Both the position numbers and the translations under genes were made by a program. Below, piece by piece: positions 45,750-54,394 of a stretch of 64,000 nucleotides of DNA. Each line of letters starts with the position of its first letter. Position 1 is the first letter of the stretch. The stretch comes from Rheinheimera sp. Its GTDB lineage: Bacteria; Pseudomonadota; Gammaproteobacteria; Enterobacterales; Alteromonadaceae. The stretch covers positions 124,001-188,000 of the forward strand of contig DPJG01000022.1 in the NCBI GenBank assembly GCA_003543135.1. Direction: 5' to 3'. The notes below the pieces were generated by a model. That model had not been told where the DNA came from. It saw only the letters and a program-made list of their open reading frames with translations, and searched no databases.

Positions 45750-46388
45750 ATGAAAAAATTAATGATGTGGTTTGCAGCGGCTTTATTGCTGGTGCCTGCG
45801 GTACAAGCTGCCGGTAAATATGAAGAAGGTGAACACTATCAGGTTATTTCTGAGCAAAAAACCGCCAAACCTGAAGTGAAAGAGTTTTTCTCTTTTTATT
45901 GCCCACACTGTAACGCATTTGAACCTGTAGTGCAGAGCCTGGAAAAATCTCTGCCTGAAGGTGTGGCGCTGAAAAAATTTCATGTTGATTTTATGGGCGG
46001 TGCCAAACAGGAAACTCAGGCCGCATTAAGCCGTGCTATGGTACTGGGCAAAGTTAAAGGCAAAGGCAATGAAGTGAACCGTGCATTATTTGAGCACATT
46101 CATACCAAACGCAAAGCTTTCGCCAGCGAGCAGGATATTCGTGAGGTGGTATTAAGCGCAGGGATTGACGCCGCCGACTACGACAAAAACATCAACAACT
46201 TTGTGGTGAAATCTCAGGTTAGCCTGATGCAAAAAGAACAAAATACCCTGTCAAAGTCCCGTGTGCTGACTTCGGTGCCGACTTTTATTGTCAACGGTCG
46301 CTACAAAATCGACATCAGCAAGCTGGATCAGTCCAACCTGGAACAGGACTTAAAAGCGCTGGTTAACCATTTACTGCAACTGCCTTAA
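45750..46388 (+). CDS. dsbA: Periplasmic disulfide oxidase DsbA, CPHC type
   Basis: This 212-residue precursor has a signal peptide ending at VQA (residue 20). The thioredoxin-fold domain carries the canonical DsbA active site Cys51-Pro-His-Cys54 within FFSFYCPHCNAFEP. The helical insertion domain follows, and the cis-proline loop is TSVPTFIVNG. It introduces disulfides into exported proteins and is reoxidised by DsbB. It lies downstream of srkA and 18 bases before a second dsbA paralogue. Confidence 0.96.
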   Translation: MKKLMMWFAAALLLVPAVQAAGKYEEGEHYQVISEQKTAKPEVKEFFSFYCPHCNAFEPVVQSLEKSLPEGVALKKFHVDFMGGAKQETQAALSRAMVLGKVKGKGNEVNRALFEHIHTKRKAFASEQDIREVVLSAGIDAADYDKNINNFVVKSQVSLMQKEQNTLSKSRVLTSVPTFIVNGRYKIDISKLDQSNLEQDLKALVNHLLQLP

Positions 46389-46406
46389 TTTTCCGGAGGT
46401 TTTATC

Positions 46407-47048
46407 ATGTTTCGCCGTATTTTACTCAGTGCCGCTGCACTGCTTAGCCTGACATTGACCGTTCAGGCGACAGAATTTGTTGAAGGTACCCACTATGAAG
46501 TGGTTGCTGAAAAAGCCACTGCCAAACCTGAAGTGAAAGAGTTTTTTTCGTTTTATTGTGGCCATTGTTTCCGCTTTGAGCCTTTCGCCAATAAACTGGC
46601 CAATCAGCTGCCAAAAGGCGTGATGCTGGAAAAAGTGCATGTGGATTTTGTGCAAGCCGCAGCACCAGACATACAAAACGCGCTGGCCCGTGCTTATCTG
46701 GTGGGTAAATCCGCAGGTCAGGGTGAAAAAGTTGCAGCGATGATTTTTGATTATATTCATCAAAAACGCGCTACTTTCAGCAATGAAGCTGATATTCGCA
46801 ACCTGTTAGTGGTCAATGATTTTGACGGCAAAGTGTTTGACGCGAAAATCAACAGCATGCCAATTGTGACTGGCGCCAACGCGATGAAATCTGCCCAAAA
46901 CCACTGGTCAGAAAAGCGCGTACTGACCGGTGTACCTATGCTGTTGGTGAATGGCAAATACAAACTGAAGTTTGACCAGCTGAACTCAGAAAATTTTGAC
47001 CAGGAACTGCAACAGCTGGTGACCTACCTGCTGGCGAAAAAAGACTAA
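46407..47048 (+). CDS. DsbA paralogue with CGHC active site
   Basis: This 213-residue precursor is clearly a duplicate of the preceding DsbA. It has a signal peptide to residue 20, the same AKPEVKEFFSFYC block, and an insertion domain with the same spacing (FDYIHQKRATFSNEADIRNL against FEHIHTKRKAFASEQDIREV). The active site is Cys51-Gly-His-Cys54, as in protein disulfide isomerase, and the cis-Pro loop is TGVPMLLVNG. The dipeptide between the cysteines tunes redox potential, so this copy probably differs in redox behaviour or substrates. A GGAGG site precedes the ATG, and a strong terminator follows. Confidence 0.92.
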   Translation: MFRRILLSAAALLSLTLTVQATEFVEGTHYEVVAEKATAKPEVKEFFSFYCGHCFRFEPFANKLANQLPKGVMLEKVHVDFVQAAAPDIQNALARAYLVGKSAGQGEKVAAMIFDYIHQKRATFSNEADIRNLLVVNDFDGKVFDAKINSMPIVTGANAMKSAQNHWSEKRVLTGVPMLLVNGKYKLKFDQLNSENFDQELQQLVTYLLAKKD

Positions 47049-50241: not shown

Positions 50242-50544
50242 ATGGCTTTTTTCCTGATTCTTTTTACCTGCTGTTTGTTGATCCTGGCTTTGCATCTGCA
50301 TTTAAAATTGCGGCAACTGGCCAGCGAACCACAAATTTTTGCCGAAGTTGCCGTTGAGCTGCAACAACGCGCGCACGATTTGCTGGTACGTAAAGACCAA
50401 TTGGATGCAAGACAAAACAGTGTGAGCAAGGATGAAGATGAGCACTGGCGCAATGATGTCGCCCAGTATATGGAAGATTATGAGCAGGAAGCTTTGGCGC
50501 GCGCCAGAGTGCATTTAGGCCGTAAAACTCCGTCAGTCAGCTGA
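50242..50544 (+). CDS. Single-pass membrane protein with charged cytoplasmic tail, unknown
   Basis: This 100-residue protein has an N-terminal membrane helix (residues 2-21, rich in Leu and Cys) followed by a charged, helical tail of about 75 residues with coiled-coil character (LRQLASEPQIFAEVAVELQQ and on). It starts 3 bases after the stop of the five-helix protein, which suggests the two act together. The stop codon lies inside the terminator stem. I do not recognise the family. Confidence 0.72.
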   Translation: MAFFLILFTCCLLILALHLHLKLRQLASEPQIFAEVAVELQQRAHDLLVRKDQLDARQNSVSKDEDEHWRNDVAQYMEDYEQEALARARVHLGRKTPSVS

Positions 50545-50557
50545 CGGAGTTTTATTT
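50524..50557 (+). terminator. Terminator overlapping the stop codon of the three-gene unit
   Basis: CTCCGTCAG (50528-50536), loop TCAG, CTGACGGAG (50541-50549), flanked by AAAA and TTTTATTTTT. The stop codon (50542-50544) lies in the right arm. Confidence 0.88.
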
Positions 50558-50566
50558 TTACCTTTA

Positions 50567-51763
50567 TCAGCCACCACTACGACGCACCTTTGTTTGTGCT
50601 TGTTGTGCCAGCTTTAACTGTTGCGGTCCAGCCAACACCTGCTGCCAGAACCAGCCAGCCAGAGGTCCTATCACATCCGCTTCCGCATTGGTCAGCAGCA
50701 CCAGGCCATAACCACTTTGGGGTGAATAGGCAATATAAGGCCGGTAACCGTCTACCACACCAGCATGGTAATACAACTTTTCATTGTCATATTGCACCAT
50801 CCGCCAGCCGCGGCCGTACCAGGCACTCACCTGTTTAAACTGCTGCCACACCGGCCAGCGTGGTTTACCCGGCATTCGGGTTAACGGCTGCTGCAGCTGG
50901 CTCAGTAACTGTGGTGGCAACACGTCTGGCCTTTGCCCCAGCATGGCCTGTAAATAAATGGCCAGATCCCGCGCGCTCGCATTCACCCCGGCTGCAGCGC
51001 TTACACGGTAAAAATTGGCTTTGGGTTTCACCTGCCGCCAACCTTTGCCGCCCCGTTCATGCGGCATGGCTTTGTTGCGTGACGCCAGTAGTGGTGCAAG
51101 GCCAACAGAAGCGGTTTGCATACCCAAAGGTTGAAACAAACGCTGCTTTAATAACTGATCGTATTTTTGGCCTGTTGCCCGCTCCAGCGCATTGCCGAGC
51201 AAACCAAAAAACACGTTCTGATAACTGTAACAACGCCCCAGCGGACACACCGGGCTGAGCTCTTTCAGGCGTGGCAGGATTTGCGCCGGCGTTTGGTCGG
51301 CTTCAATTAAGTCTTCAAAAGCATGAGCCCAAAAACCACTGCTGTGCGACAACACCTGCTCCAGGGTCAGGCTTTGTGTCAGCTCCGGGGTTCTGAGCTG
51401 CAGTTCAGGCACGTATTTAGATAAAGCCTGCTGTAATTCCAGCTGCTGCGCCTGTTGTGCCTGCACCAGACTGACACCGGCAAAAGTTTTTGATACTGAC
51501 GCCAGACGAAATACGGTATCAGCATTAACTGTGGCACGCTCGCCCACAGATCGCACACCATAATGTCCCAGCTTCAGAATACGGTCGCCCTGCACTATGG
51601 CATAAGCACCGCCCGGCACTTTGGCTTTTTGCAGCTTTTCTCTGAACTGCTGTTCAAAACTGTGCAATAACTCGGCTTCTGACACAGGCGCGGCCGGCAC
51701 AGCCGCACTCAATAGCGCCAATATCAGCAACACTTTGCGCAAGCGCGATTCTTTTAACAACAT
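50567..51763 (-). CDS. AmpC-like serine hydrolase (beta-lactamase/penicillin-binding family)
   Basis: This 398-residue precursor starts at the ATG at 51763 with GGAG 6 bases upstream. A signal peptide ends near AAVPAA. The beta-lactamase/transpeptidase fold motifs are Ser89-Val-Ser-Lys (S-x-x-K), Tyr181-Gln-Asn (Y-x-N) and a His-Ala-Gly in place of the KTG box. This HxG variant is usual in class C-like esterases and D-alanyl-peptidases, so beta-lactamase activity is not assured. It is the third gene of an operon with a BlaI-like repressor and an M56-M23 membrane protease, 49 bases after the latter. Confidence 0.86.
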   Translation of the reverse strand: MLLKESRLRKVLLILALLSAAVPAAPVSEAELLHSFEQQFREKLQKAKVPGGAYAIVQGDRILKLGHYGVRSVGERATVNADTVFRLASVSKTFAGVSLVQAQQAQQLELQQALSKYVPELQLRTPELTQSLTLEQVLSHSSGFWAHAFEDLIEADQTPAQILPRLKELSPVCPLGRCYSYQNVFFGLLGNALERATGQKYDQLLKQRLFQPLGMQTASVGLAPLLASRNKAMPHERGGKGWRQVKPKANFYRVSAAAGVNASARDLAIYLQAMLGQRPDVLPPQLLSQLQQPLTRMPGKPRWPVWQQFKQVSAWYGRGWRMVQYDNEKLYYHAGVVDGYRPYIAYSPQSGYGLVLLTNAEADVIGPLAGWFWQQVLAGPQQLKLAQQAQTKVRRSGG

Positions 51764-51812
51764 GCCAAACTCCGGAAAATAATACTTCATCGCTCAAAGG
51801 CGTTGCGCCTGT

Positions 51813-53210
51813 TTAAGGTAAAGCCGGTAAATACAACATAGGATCCTGGGGTACACCCTGGTGCAGCAGTTCAAAATGCAAATGTGCCCCTGTAGCTTTG
51901 CCACTGCTGCCCACTGCCGCTATCGGAGCCCCGGCCAGCACCCTGTCACCAGGCTTAACATTCACCTGTTGCAAATGTGCGTATAAGGTCTGGTAGCCAG
52001 CACCATGGTCCAGCAACACCACCAAACCAAGATTGGGGTGCAAAGTGCTGTCATCGGCAATCAGGACTCTGGCCGTCGCCACGGCGCGGACTTCATCACC
52101 GGTATGTCCGGCTAAATCAAGCCCCGAATGAGGTCTGTACTGACGAAGAGCACTTTTCACACCAAAAGCTGAATTCACTTCCACCTGTTGCAGCGGCCAT
52201 TGCCACTGCCGGGGAGCTGCGTGTTGCCCCCACACCTGGCTCAACAACAAATAACCCAACAACATCAACAGCAGCAGCACAACAACCAGCGCTGTCAACC
52301 GACGTGCCGGCCATAACGGCACCGGCTGAAACAGTTGCACTAAGCGCTGTTGATAAAACTGCTCGTCCAGCTGCTGCTGAGTAAAACCGGCACTGACCTG
52401 GCTGGCATGTTGCTGATATTTCAGGCTGGTCAACATGGCTTTGCCATAACTGAGCGCCAGCTCAGGCTGAGATGCCAGTACCTGACGGTCTACACAAAAC
52501 TCCATGGCACAGACAAAAGCCGCCTCCAGTTTGCTGACCACCGGATTAAACCAGCATAAAGCGGCCAGCAGCCGCCAGCACACCAATTGTTGTGGATCGC
52601 AGCGCTGCACATGACAAAGCTCATGTTGTAATAACAACACACGTTCAGCAGGGGGAAAATCGCTAAAATTGGCCGGCAACAGCAGTGACAAGCGGAACAA
52701 GCCAAACACAAAAGGTGAGCCGGTACCCTGTTGCTGTTTTATCTGTAATTTAGCAAGCTGTGCCCCCAGTTGGTCAGCAGCTGCCGGGTTTATCCCCTGC
52801 AGCACAGCGCTCAGCACCAGATTGTCTGCCTGAGCAGACAACAGAGACAACCGCCGCCATTGTTGCCGGAGCTGCCATAACCGCCAGCAAGCACCGCTGA
52901 ACCAGATGCAGCTCAACAACATCAGCAACAATTCGGACCAATGCAACTGCGCACTCAGACCTGGATGCATAACCTTCGCCGTCCAATAAGCTGTGGTACC
53001 GGCAACGGGCTCTAATAAAGCAGCAGGGATCACCCATTCTTGTTGCCATTTTAACGGTGGCCAGAGCGGCAAAGTGCAACAAAAAAGTGCCAGCCAGTAT
53101 CCTGTCGACCACTGCGCCAGCGCGGGTCTTTTCCTTAGCACAACCTGCAATCCAGACCAGAGCAAAAAGCTCCAGAGTACAAAAACACAAAGTTGCAGCA
53201 AGATCAGCAT
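51813..53210 (-). CDS. M56 (BlaR1-like) membrane protease fused to an M23 (LytM) peptidase domain
   Basis: This 465-residue protein has two complete metallopeptidase domains. The N-terminal BlaR1-type M56 part has membrane helices at about 3-22, 36-52, 88-108 and 305-325. Its zinc site is His196-Glu-x-x-His200 (HELCH) with Glu237 in AMEFCVDRQVL. After the last helix, where BlaR1 carries a penicillin-binding sensor, there is an M23 domain (about 340-462): His361-x3-Asp365 (HSGLDLAG), His412 (LYAHLQ) and His443-x-His445 (GAHLHFEL). All zinc and catalytic positions are present. It overlaps the BlaI-like gene by 7 bases. Inference: the M23 domain contacts or cuts peptidoglycan and the M56 domain signals inward to the repressor. 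Confidence 0.9.
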   Translation of the reverse strand: MLILLQLCVFVLWSFLLWSGLQVVLRKRPALAQWSTGYWLALFCCTLPLWPPLKWQQEWVIPAALLEPVAGTTAYWTAKVMHPGLSAQLHWSELLLMLLSCIWFSGACWRLWQLRQQWRRLSLLSAQADNLVLSAVLQGINPAAADQLGAQLAKLQIKQQQGTGSPFVFGLFRLSLLLPANFSDFPPAERVLLLQHELCHVQRCDPQQLVCWRLLAALCWFNPVVSKLEAAFVCAMEFCVDRQVLASQPELALSYGKAMLTSLKYQQHASQVSAGFTQQQLDEQFYQQRLVQLFQPVPLWPARRLTALVVVLLLLMLLGYLLLSQVWGQHAAPRQWQWPLQQVEVNSAFGVKSALRQYRPHSGLDLAGHTGDEVRAVATARVLIADDSTLHPNLGLVVLLDHGAGYQTLYAHLQQVNVKPGDRVLAGAPIAAVGSSGKATGAHLHFELLHQGVPQDPMLYLPALP

Positions 53211-53593
53211 TTGTTGTCCGCCTGCTCTGCTGCCGCCAGCCTGCTGAGCAACTGTTCCAGTTCGGCAATTTCTGTTGCATTCACCAGTTGACTGCCAGCA
53301 AACATGGCCACAGGCAAAGGCCCTTTCAGCTCAAAAATGCGGCTGGCAAAGTCCTGGGCAAAAGCCGCCAGCGTACTGACTTTATCGGCCAACGCGCTGT
53401 AACTGTTTTTGTGACCCTGACTTTCAAAACTAACCAGTCCTTTTTCGGTCATACGCTCCAACGTTTTGCGGGTGGATGAATAACCCCAACCCAATACCGG
53501 CGCCAGCTCATCGTGCAGTTCACGCGCCGTCAGCGGTTGTTTTGACCATAACAGTTTCAGAATTTCCAACTCAGGCGCCGTTGGTTGTTGCAT
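53204..53593 (-). CDS. BlaI/MecI-family transcriptional repressor
   Basis: This 129-residue protein has a winged helix with the BlaI pattern: PTAPELEILKLLWSKQPLTA, RELHDELAPVLGWGYSSTRK and TLERMTEKGLVSFESQG, then a dimerisation tail. In the family, the partner BlaR1 protease leads to cleavage of the repressor between helices. The ATG at 53593 is the best start by homology; the frame runs upstream through the operator and is unlikely to be translated there. It is the first gene of the three-gene unit and overlaps the M56-M23 gene. Two matching palindromes lie 38-87 bases upstream, fitting autoregulation. Confidence 0.9.
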   Translation of the reverse strand: MQQPTAPELEILKLLWSKQPLTARELHDELAPVLGWGYSSTRKTLERMTEKGLVSFESQGHKNSYSALADKVSTLAAFAQDFASRIFELKGPLPVAMFAGSQLVNATEIAELEQLLSRLAAAEQADNKC

Positions 53594-53630
53594 CAGTGAA
53601 CCCAGCGTAAAAACAATAATAGCGTTATAG

Positions 53631-53646
53631 TGCGACATATGTCGCA
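53631..53646. promoter_or_regulatory. Operator palindrome 1 of the BlaI-like repressor
   Basis: TGCGACATATGTCGCA is a perfect 16-bp palindrome 38 bases upstream of the repressor start. It shares the core TGCGAC-N4-GTCGCA with the second site. TATAAC lies just next to it on the minus strand and may be part of the repressor promoter. Confidence 0.8.
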
Positions 53647-53662
53647 GAGTAGCAAGCAAAAA

Positions 53663-53680
53663 CTGCGACTACTGTCGCAG
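53663..53680. promoter_or_regulatory. Operator palindrome 2 of the BlaI-like repressor
   Basis: CTGCGACTACTGTCGCAG has perfect 7-bp arms around TACT. Its centre is 33 bp from that of the first site, about three helical turns, so two repressor dimers would bind the same face. It lies between the repressor operon and the divergent lipoprotein gene. Confidence 0.8.
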
Positions 53681-53830
53681 CTTTTATCCTTCTGGAAAAA
53701 CCGTTGCAACCGCGCTTTAGCTGAGTCACACAACTTTTTTGCCTGTGGCTTGAAGCTGCAGTGGATAAACCCCATCTTTATGGGCATAGCAGCCAGCCTG
53801 ACTGGCACCCATTTATTTTCAGGAGTTGTT

Positions 53831-54394
53831 ATGTCTGTTGTTCATCGTTATACCCTGCCTGTGTTGTTGTCATTTTTTCTGACCAGCTGTGGTTATTTTT
53901 CTGCTGATCCTAAACAACTGGCTGAACAGGCCTGGCTTGCCAAAGATCAACAATTAGCAGAGGCAGTGAGCCAAATTCGTGAACAGGGGCTGGATGCAGT
54001 GGTAGCCTCTGCAGAAGCAGGTTCGGTGGCTGCCTGTGTGGCCGGAAAACTGACCACAGACCCACTGGGGAAACTGATTAGTGTTGAAGGTGCTCTGGCG
54101 GAATCGGCCAAAGTGGCGCAATTATTAGCCGACTTAGAACAATTGTTACAGCAGGATTTTAGCTTTGAACAGCTGGCCAGCACCCTTGAAAAAGGTGCAG
54201 CGGCTGCAGCTTATGCCAAAACCTTAATCGACCAGCAAGGTCTGGAACAGGCGCTGCAGACGTTAAAACAAATGGTGAGTGCCAGCAGCGCTGTTGCACA
54301 GCAAGACTTAGGGGCGCATTTGCAGTCCTTATTACAGTCTTGTCAGACTGCAGCCCCGGCAGAAACAACTAGCACCACATCACAAAAAGTCTGA
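53831..54394 (+). CDS. Lipoprotein divergent from the BlaI-like operon, unknown
   Basis: The ATG at 53831 with AGGAG 6 bases upstream gives a 187-residue precursor; the longer frame from 53630 runs through the operators and is not plausible. The lipobox is FLTSC (Cys20). The mature part is Ala/Leu/Gln-rich and helical, with conserved-looking AEAGSVAACVAGKL and a Cys near the end (SLLQSCQTA). No domain is recognised. Sharing the operator region with the repressor suggests joint control with the M56-M23 protease and the serine hydrolase. Confidence 0.8.
   Translation: MSVVHRYTLPVLLSFFLTSCGYFSADPKQLAEQAWLAKDQQLAEAVSQIREQGLDAVVASAEAGSVAACVAGKLTTDPLGKLISVEGALAESAKVAQLLADLEQLLQQDFSFEQLASTLEKGAAAAAYAKTLIDQQGLEQALQTLKQMVSASSAVAQQDLGAHLQSLLQSCQTAAPAETTSTTSQKV

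What the first reader, a model, noticed from the sequence alone, without database searches (positions are those of the whole stretch)
51813..53210. BlaR1-like M56 protease whose sensor is replaced by an M23 peptidoglycan peptidase domain
The protein keeps the full BlaR1 membrane protease (HELCH and the distal Glu). Where BlaR1 has a penicillin-binding sensor it has a complete LytM-type M23 domain with every zinc and catalytic residue. If it senses by binding or cutting peptidoglycan, the circuit would report on cell-wall structure directly rather than on a beta-lactam. M56-M23 fusions have been seen in databases, as I recall, but I know of no experimental account of one as a signal transducer.
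Basis: partly seen in the sequence, partly recalled or inferred. Interest (0 to 1): 0.82.

Follow-up and report, generated by a model that had tools for sequence, protein, structure and literature searches.

The report
BlaR1-type receptor with peptidoglycan-peptidase sensor
A bacterial membrane receptor of the kind that normally switches on penicillin resistance here carries a cell-wall-cutting enzyme domain where the penicillin sensor usually sits; the arrangement, with its repressor gene, recurs in related bacteria, so it may be a switch that reads cell-wall fragments, which has not been tested.

Summary
The 465-aa minus-strand protein is a BlaR1-type M56 protease (model residues 3-287 match BlaR1 cryo-EM structures) followed by a complete LytM-type M23 domain (331-463). 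It is the middle gene of a three-gene operon: BlaI-like repressor, M56-M23 receptor, class C-type serine hydrolase, with two tandem TGCGACA-NN-TGTCGCA dyads before blaI. In 39 distinct fusions from Pseudomonadota, BlaI is next door in 39, M56 residues are intact in 39, all five M23 residues in 38, and the operator (up to two mismatches) is present in 38. In Oxalobacteraceae and an unnamed relative the same repressor lineage, protease and operator occur with either M23 or a penicillin-binding domain, in one genome with both, so M23 sits in the sensor slot. Where recognisable, neighbours are extracytoplasmic hydrolases or TonB receptors. A regulated-proteolysis circuit with M23 as sensor is well supported by sequence. 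That the ligand is peptidoglycan-derived is inference; binding, cutting and induction are untested. The architecture was already noted in a review without a function; the operator-defined lineage and sensor exchange look new within my limited searches.

The parts
53663..53680 (-). Operator O1, 18-bp dyad CTGCGAC-AGTA-GTCGCAG
   Evidence: one mismatch to TGCGACANNTGTCGCA. The only other one-mismatch site of the genome, C5:166459, lies inside an ORF
53631..53646 (-). Operator O2, TGCGACATATGTCGCA, centre 33 bp from O1
   Evidence: the only exact match in the 3.99-Mb assembly; two sites 33-34 bp apart in 19 of 19 genus loci
53204..53593 (-). BlaI/MecI-like repressor, 129 aa from the ATG at 53593; cleavage-site equivalent Met97-Phe98
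   Evidence: PF03965 6.1e-22; aligned with MecI; P1' Phe in 38 of 39. Start codon chosen by me
52227..53210 (-). BlaR1-type M56 membrane protease part, residues 1-328 (HELCH 196-200, E237, D241; last helix of the model 302-328)
   Evidence: PF05569; model helices; BlaR1 fold; residues in 39 of 39
51813..52205 (-). M23/LytM domain in the sensor position, residues 336-465 (H361, D365, H412, H443, H445)
   Evidence: PF01551; LytM fold; residues; dN/dS
50567..51790 (-). Class C beta-lactamase-fold serine hydrolase (SVSK, YQN, HAG); a later ATG at 51763 may be the start
   Evidence: PF00144 1.8e-63; motifs; third gene in 19 of 19 genus loci
50522..50555 (.). Terminator-like stem of 15 pairs after the operon
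   Evidence: consensus match only, and such sites are no more frequent than in shuffles (4 found, mean 5.3)

Best explanation
This is a BlaI/BlaR1-type regulated-proteolysis circuit whose sensor is an M23 domain. Proposed working: BlaI dimers sit on the two dyads and repress the operon. The receptor lies in the inner membrane with the M56 protease facing the cytoplasm and the M23 domain just outside. When the M23 groove binds, and probably cuts, a peptidoglycan-derived peptide in the periplasm (nascent strands or soluble muropeptides more likely than the mature sacculus), the change passes through the last helix and the extracellular loop. M56 then cuts BlaI before Phe98 and the operon is derepressed, raising a periplasmic serine hydrolase. 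SHOWN by sequence or predicted model: domain order, both folds, intact catalytic residues, BlaI partner, operators, the P1' Phe in BlaI. INFERRED: membrane sidedness, BlaI binding and cleavage, signal passage, and the peptidoglycan ligand.
For: BlaR1 fold and LytM fold in one model. BlaI immediately upstream in 39 of 39 fusions. Operator with 0-1 mismatches of 14 before blaI in 35 of 39, 0-2 in 38 of 39. The Phe of the BlaR1 self-cleavage site is matched in 34 of 39 receptors and the Phe of the BlaI site in 38 of 39; the sites S283-F284 and N101-F102 are from PMC9834060, passages. Sensor exchange: 7 receptors with a PBP-like C-terminus group with 4 M23-type receptors (100/100); the BlaIs of 39 M23-type and 6 PBP-type loci form one clade (100/98) and 5 of 6 named PBP-type loci share the operator; genome G837 has both types. 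Recognised neighbours of M23-type loci include an M23 endopeptidase (L076), polysaccharide deacetylases (L052, L179), PF00756 esterases and M1 peptidases. The M23 part is under purifying selection (dN/dS 0.077, 0.084, 0.167).
Against: No ligand, binding, cleavage or induction is shown. Neighbours vary: TonB receptors (6 loci) and PF00756 esterases are not specific to peptidoglycan, and for six loci no clear partner was found. That output follows sensor type rests on little: a class C gene with KTG was recognised in only 2 of 7 PBP-type loci (L078, L083). In the own clade M23 starts only 7-14 residues after the last-helix window, so the mature wall may be out of reach (geometry recalled). L198 lacks one zinc His at its place and the self-cleavage Phe is missing in 5 of 39. 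The extracellular loop is not resolved (pLDDT under 50 for 55-89).
Confidence: 0.57

Rival explanations
1. Same circuit, other ligand: the M23 domain is a receptor for a peptide that is not peptidoglycan, for example one taken up through the TonB receptor encoded next door, and the regulon processes that compound.
For: TonB receptors follow the fusion in L085, L088, L178, L186, L187, L198; M1 peptidases near L177, L186, L190 and a PF00756 esterase near L177.
Against: The domain matches LytM-family domains, most of them known to act in peptidoglycan turnover, in sequence and fold; L076 carries an M23 endopeptidase in third position.
Confidence: 0.22
2. The M23 domain is the effector, not the sensor: a membrane-tethered peptidoglycan endopeptidase whose amount, and perhaps release by M56 self-cleavage or signal peptidase, is set by BlaI, another part of the protein doing the sensing.
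For: All catalytic residues kept in 38 of 39, more than a pure binding domain needs; purifying selection on M23.
Against: A PBP-type domain replaces M23 at the same position in sister loci that share the operator; no other known domain is found in the protein.
Confidence: 0.16
3. The M23 part is a non-functional or decorative tail on an ordinary M56 protein.
For: M56 proteins of very different length and C-terminus exist.
Against: dN/dS 0.077-0.167 in M23; residues kept across families.
Confidence: 0.03

Closest known systems
BlaR1/MecR1 with BlaI/MecI (S. aureus, B. licheniformis)
   Same: M56 protease fold and catalytic residues, gene partner, P1' Phe in the repressor, dyad operators, a domain after the last helix
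   Different: That domain is M23, not penicillin-binding; operator TGCGACA-NN-TGTCGCA; the third gene of the window lacks KTG
LytM/M23 endopeptidases and LytM regulators (ShyA, DipM, EnvC)
   Same: Fold and, unlike EnvC (recalled), a full zinc and catalytic set
   Different: Fused to an M56 protease and encoded with a repressor
M23 plus M56 architecture listed in the M23 review PMC9662197 (passages)
   Same: Same two domains in one protein
   Different: The passages give no signalling role for the fusion; they say that a role of M56 in peptidoglycan cleavage has not been shown and name BlaR1/MecR1 as M56 members
Peptidoglycan dipeptide as BlaI coactivator in B. licheniformis (PMC3305447, abstract and outline)
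   Same: A cell-wall fragment as a signal in a BlaI circuit
   Different: There the fragment acts on BlaI in the cytoplasm; here a periplasmic receptor domain is proposed

Membership tests
BlaR1/MecR1 receptor | M56 protease (PF05569, HExxH and distal Glu) | tested here: met
   (84.9 bits, cut-off 31); 39 of 39
BlaR1/MecR1 receptor | BlaR1 membrane-protease fold | tested here: met
BlaR1/MecR1 receptor | BlaI/MecI gene partner and dyad operator | tested here: met
   (binding itself not tested)
BlaR1/MecR1 receptor | C-terminal penicillin-binding sensor (PF00905) | tested here: not met
   the Pfam scan gives M56, M23 and a weak DUF7859 hit below its cut-off
BlaR1/MecR1 receptor | NCBIfam blaR1_generic cut-off | tested here: not met
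   40.3 bits against 400
BlaR1/MecR1 receptor | Induction by beta-lactam acylation | not testable with these tools
   needs bench work
M23 peptidase (PF01551) | Profile, fold and five zinc/catalytic residues | tested here: met
M23 peptidase (PF01551) | Peptidoglycan hydrolysis | not testable with these tools
   needs purified protein
BlaI/MecI (PF03965) | Penicillinase_R profile and cleavage-site Phe | tested here: met
   78.6 bits, cut-off 22.6; Phe in 38 of 39. The narrow NCBIfam BlaI_of_BCL (35.5 of 180) and CopY (50.1 of 121.95) cut-offs are not met
Class C beta-lactamase (third gene) | SxxK, YxN and KTG motifs | tested here: not met
   SVSK and YQN present, HAG in place of KTG; bla_class_C 115.2 bits against 415

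The most novel reading that the evidence does not exclude
A whole BlaI/BlaR1 lineage in Pseudomonadota reads peptidoglycan peptides directly: the M23 groove is plugged by the receptor's own extracellular loop (in the Rheinheimera group by the invariant His82-Pro83, which could cap the zinc), a muropeptide displaces the plug as beta-lactams displace EL1 in BlaR1, and in Oxalobacteraceae the M23 sensor was exchanged for a penicillin-binding one, so that a wall sensor became an antibiotic sensor on the same chassis.
Probability: 0.25. Interest if true: 0.88.

Novelty: new variant of a known kind. Interest (0 to 1): 0.7.

Why it matters
If true, bacteria have a one-receptor route from a peptidoglycan peptide in the periplasm to gene control by repressor proteolysis, next to the AmpR-type and kinase-type routes (recalled). 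The shared repressor, protease and operator with exchangeable sensors would let one test how BlaR1-type receptors pass a signal, and would make the relation between wall sensing and beta-lactam sensing something to examine by domain swaps in harmless aquatic bacteria.

Tried and rejected
Plasmid search for the full fusion: 3552 records match, none over 80% of the query; the 20 listed rows are M23-only stretches. Defence-system library: no hit for the receptor at E 0.01. Operator search in the own genome: with up to 2 mismatches 19 forward matches against 16 for the reversed control, so beyond the promoter pair I claim no wider regulon there; the other one-mismatch site (C5:166459, L066) lies inside an ORF. 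G018:C234 (L065) is a single site inside a long ORF and was dropped; G018:C476, G011:C61 and G007:C14 and G917:C19 are single sites not followed. For the 12-base core used the reversed control also gives 0-2 matches a genome, so single sites there mean little. Promoter hexamers: not above shuffles (2 found, mean 1.8).

Output follows sensor: weakened on recheck. A class C gene with KTG was recognised in 2 of 7 PBP-type loci; in L079, L081, L084, L144 and L199 a motif search found none that I could accept (one L081 row looked like a wrong-frame stretch).

Strength of selection: M23 has lower dN/dS than M56 in the two closest pairs (0.077 against 0.218; 0.084 against 0.141) but not against L076 (0.167 against 0.137); for L036 the M23 value could not be computed; BlaI and the third gene are lower still where measured (0.040-0.074).

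Direction of the sensor exchange: holding the four M23-type receptors of the mixed group together costs 0.04 log units (p-AU 0.504), so M23-first is not shown; holding all M23 rows except L052 on one side is rejected only at p-AU 0.021, for a group named after seeing the tree. L052 falls with the other M56 proteins in the M56 tree, as a long branch, but with the M23-type repressors in the BlaI tree. My searches for distant members used an M23-containing profile, so PBP-type members elsewhere would have been missed.

A conserved EL1 histidine as a general zinc plug was rejected: His-Pro is in 23 of 23 Rheinheimera/Arsukibacterium-group proteins, and anywhere in the loop in only 3 of the other 16 (L088, L198, L202).

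Literature: ten answered searches in an open-access library. Opened: PMC9662197 passages; PMC9834060 passages; PMC3305447 abstract and outline; PMC2405808 one passage, a list of separate peptidases. All other papers: listings only, so a mention inside one of them could have been missed.

Full report
WHAT IS THERE. The ORF 53210..51813 (minus strand, 465 aa) holds a Peptidase_M56 match (residues 5-274) and a Peptidase_M23 match (360-457), both far above Pfam's cut-offs. It overlaps by 7 bases a Penicillinase_R (BlaI) gene upstream, and a PF00144 serine hydrolase ORF starts 22 bases downstream, or 49 if its later ATG is used. The genome has one M56 protein above cut-off, this one; a second match is below it. 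Several same-genus genomes are Rheinheimera by their matching named records.

CONSERVATION. I gathered 39 distinct fusions: the window, 18 more of the same genus and G048, 4 Rheinheimera/Arsukibacterium-group and 3 Oxalobacteraceae loci, and 12. HExxH, E237, D241 and R289 are in 39 of 39; D365, H412, H443, H445 in 39 of 39; H361 in 38 of 39 (not L198). dN/dS of the M23 part is 0.077, 0.084 and 0.167 against L034, L035 and L076, of the M56 part 0.218, 0.141 and 0.137 (synonymous sites near saturation beyond the first pair). So M23 is constrained, but not always more than M56.

REPRESSOR AND OPERATOR. BlaI lies directly upstream in 39 of 39. Two dyads, TGCGACA-NN-TGTCGCA with up to 2 mismatches, centres 33-34 bp apart, precede blaI in 19 of 19 genus loci, although the flanking DNA differs between subgroups (by eye). 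In all 39 the best site has 0 mismatches in 21, 1 in 14, 2 in 3 and 3 in 1. In the own genome the exact site occurs once, in this promoter. In 13 distant genomes the exact site is found in 9; of 11 sites, 9 lie at blaI-M56-M23 promoters, one at the blaI-M56-PBP locus of G837 and one elsewhere (G917), with no match of the reversed control. In the genus 19 of 22 genomes have the fusion; the three without (G007, G008, G020) show no tandem pair at up to one mismatch, G007 having one isolated exact core.

CLEAVAGE SITES. In S. aureus BlaR1 cuts itself between Ser283 and Phe284 and BlaI between Asn101 and Phe102 (PMC9834060, passages). The matching receptor position is Phe in 34 of 39 (Gly275-Phe276 in the window) and in BlaI Phe in 38 of 39 (Leu in L179). 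The substrate preference of a BlaR1 protease thus appears to be kept.

SENSOR EXCHANGE. Six Oxalobacteraceae loci (L078, L079, L081, L083, L084, L144) and G837 (L199, unnamed) have a PBP-like C-terminus; Pfam confirms PF00905 with PF05569 in the three I scanned (L078, L083, L199). The operator with up to two mismatches stands before 14 of 14 M23-type loci and 5 of the 6 named PBP-type loci (not L079), before two loci whose sensor is cut off by the contig end (L080, L087), and before none of the other 58, a few of which have little upstream DNA. In the M56 tree the seven PBP-type rows and four M23-type rows form one group (100/100); in the BlaI tree the 39 M23-type and six PBP-type repressors form one clade (100/98) apart from 14 others. 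G837 carries both types about 47 kb apart. The direction of the exchange is not settled (and see Tried and rejected). The exchange is my strongest argument that M23 fills the sensor slot.

OUTPUTS. Third gene: PF00144 hydrolase in 19 of 19 genus loci (by similarity to the window's); PF00756 esterase in L069, L072, L075; an M23 endopeptidase with a LysM-like part in L076; TonB receptors in L085, L088, L178, L186, L187, L198; polysaccharide deacetylase in L052 and L179. In L177 an M1 peptidase and a PF00756 esterase run divergently from blaI with the operator between. L186 has an M1 peptidase after the TonB receptor; L190 has one 1.1 kb downstream. For L097, L188, L189, L200, L201 and L202 no clear partner was established (L200 is followed by an RND-type gene by eye). 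Five genus genomes (G005, G006, G011, G013, G014) have a second tandem site pair 33-34 bp apart beside an esterase gene, exact in the core in four and with mismatches in G005. PF00756 was scanned for G005, G006 and G011; the G014 protein is 71% identical to the in-operon esterase of L072; G013 is by eye. In G005 and G014 another alpha/beta-hydrolase gene starts on the other side of the pair, so the pair may serve either. A gene beside the operator in trans in one species thus stands in the operon in another, which supports the operator. In G011 (Pfam) and G006 (by eye) an acyltransferase and a deacetylase follow the esterase. A cell-wall theme is plausible, not proven.

THIRD GENE OF THE WINDOW. 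SVSK and YQN are present but HAG stands for KTG, while the class C enzymes beside two PBP-type receptors (L078, L083) have KTG; in the other five PBP-type loci I recognised no such gene. I do not call the window's enzyme a beta-lactamase; an AmpH/DD-peptidase-like or esterase role is possible.

MECHANISM. In BlaR1 an extracellular loop lies in the sensor groove and is displaced by the beta-lactam (PMC9834060, passages). By analogy the loop before the third helix may lie in the M23 groove; in the 23 Rheinheimera/Arsukibacterium-group proteins it ends with an invariant His-Pro (H82-P83), which could cap the zinc. This is speculation, and the motif is not general. The M23 domain begins 7-14 residues after the last-helix window in that group, up to 40 elsewhere, so nascent or soluble fragments are likelier ligands than the mature wall (geometry recalled).

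SPREAD. In samples: 8 of 398 genomes of the phylum at E 1e-45; 6 of 149 in the family of G071 (seven matches, one of them M23 only); in the class sample of 369 the own genome and 3 others by full-length match among the rows listed, most of the 319 matching genomes having M23-only matches there. Only the best few candidates per genome were scored, so these are lower bounds.

NOVELTY. The two-domain architecture is in print without a function (PMC9662197, passages), and I recall it as a database product name (M23/M56 family metallopeptidase). I found no account of it as a regulator in searches of an open-access library, of which I opened four papers. I class it as a new variant of the BlaI/BlaR1 kind.

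Noticed in passing
L078, L079, L081, L083, L084, L144, L199: The PBP-like sensors of the sister receptors read STFN where class D enzymes and BlaR1 have STFK (motif recalled), in 7 of 7 by eye; loss of that Lys might make acylation irreversible.
   Followed up: partly
L062:2677-4680: In G013 a second BlaI-like gene and an M56 protein without M23 (weak TPR matches in its tail) lie next to the operator pair and the esterase.
   Followed up: partly
L049:4352-5347 and L051:8712-9566: Stand-alone M23 proteins about 41% identical to the fusion's M23 domain lie about 4 kb from the fusion in G003 and G018.
   Followed up: no
L200:5707-8058: The G917 fusion has about 300 residues of charged, probably coiled-coil sequence after M23 (by eye).
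   Followed up: no
L198:5777-7405: This M23 domain lacks the first zinc His at the aligned place (QHGVD instead of HxGxD), the only such case in 39.
   Followed up: no
L179:7682-8080: Its BlaI reads Asn-Leu at the cleavage-site position where the other 38 have Phe.
   Followed up: no
window 45750-47048: Two adjacent DsbA-like thiol-disulphide oxidoreductase genes (CPHC and CGHC motifs by eye).
   Followed up: no
window 53630-54394: Divergent plus-strand ORF, lipoprotein-like (LTSC by eye), without a Pfam match above cut-off; its longest reading overlaps the operators, so it might share the control region.
   Followed up: no
L203:4258-5004: The own genome has a separate lipoprotein-like M23 protein (PF01551 1.7e-32), the second-best own match to the fusion profile.
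   Followed up: partly
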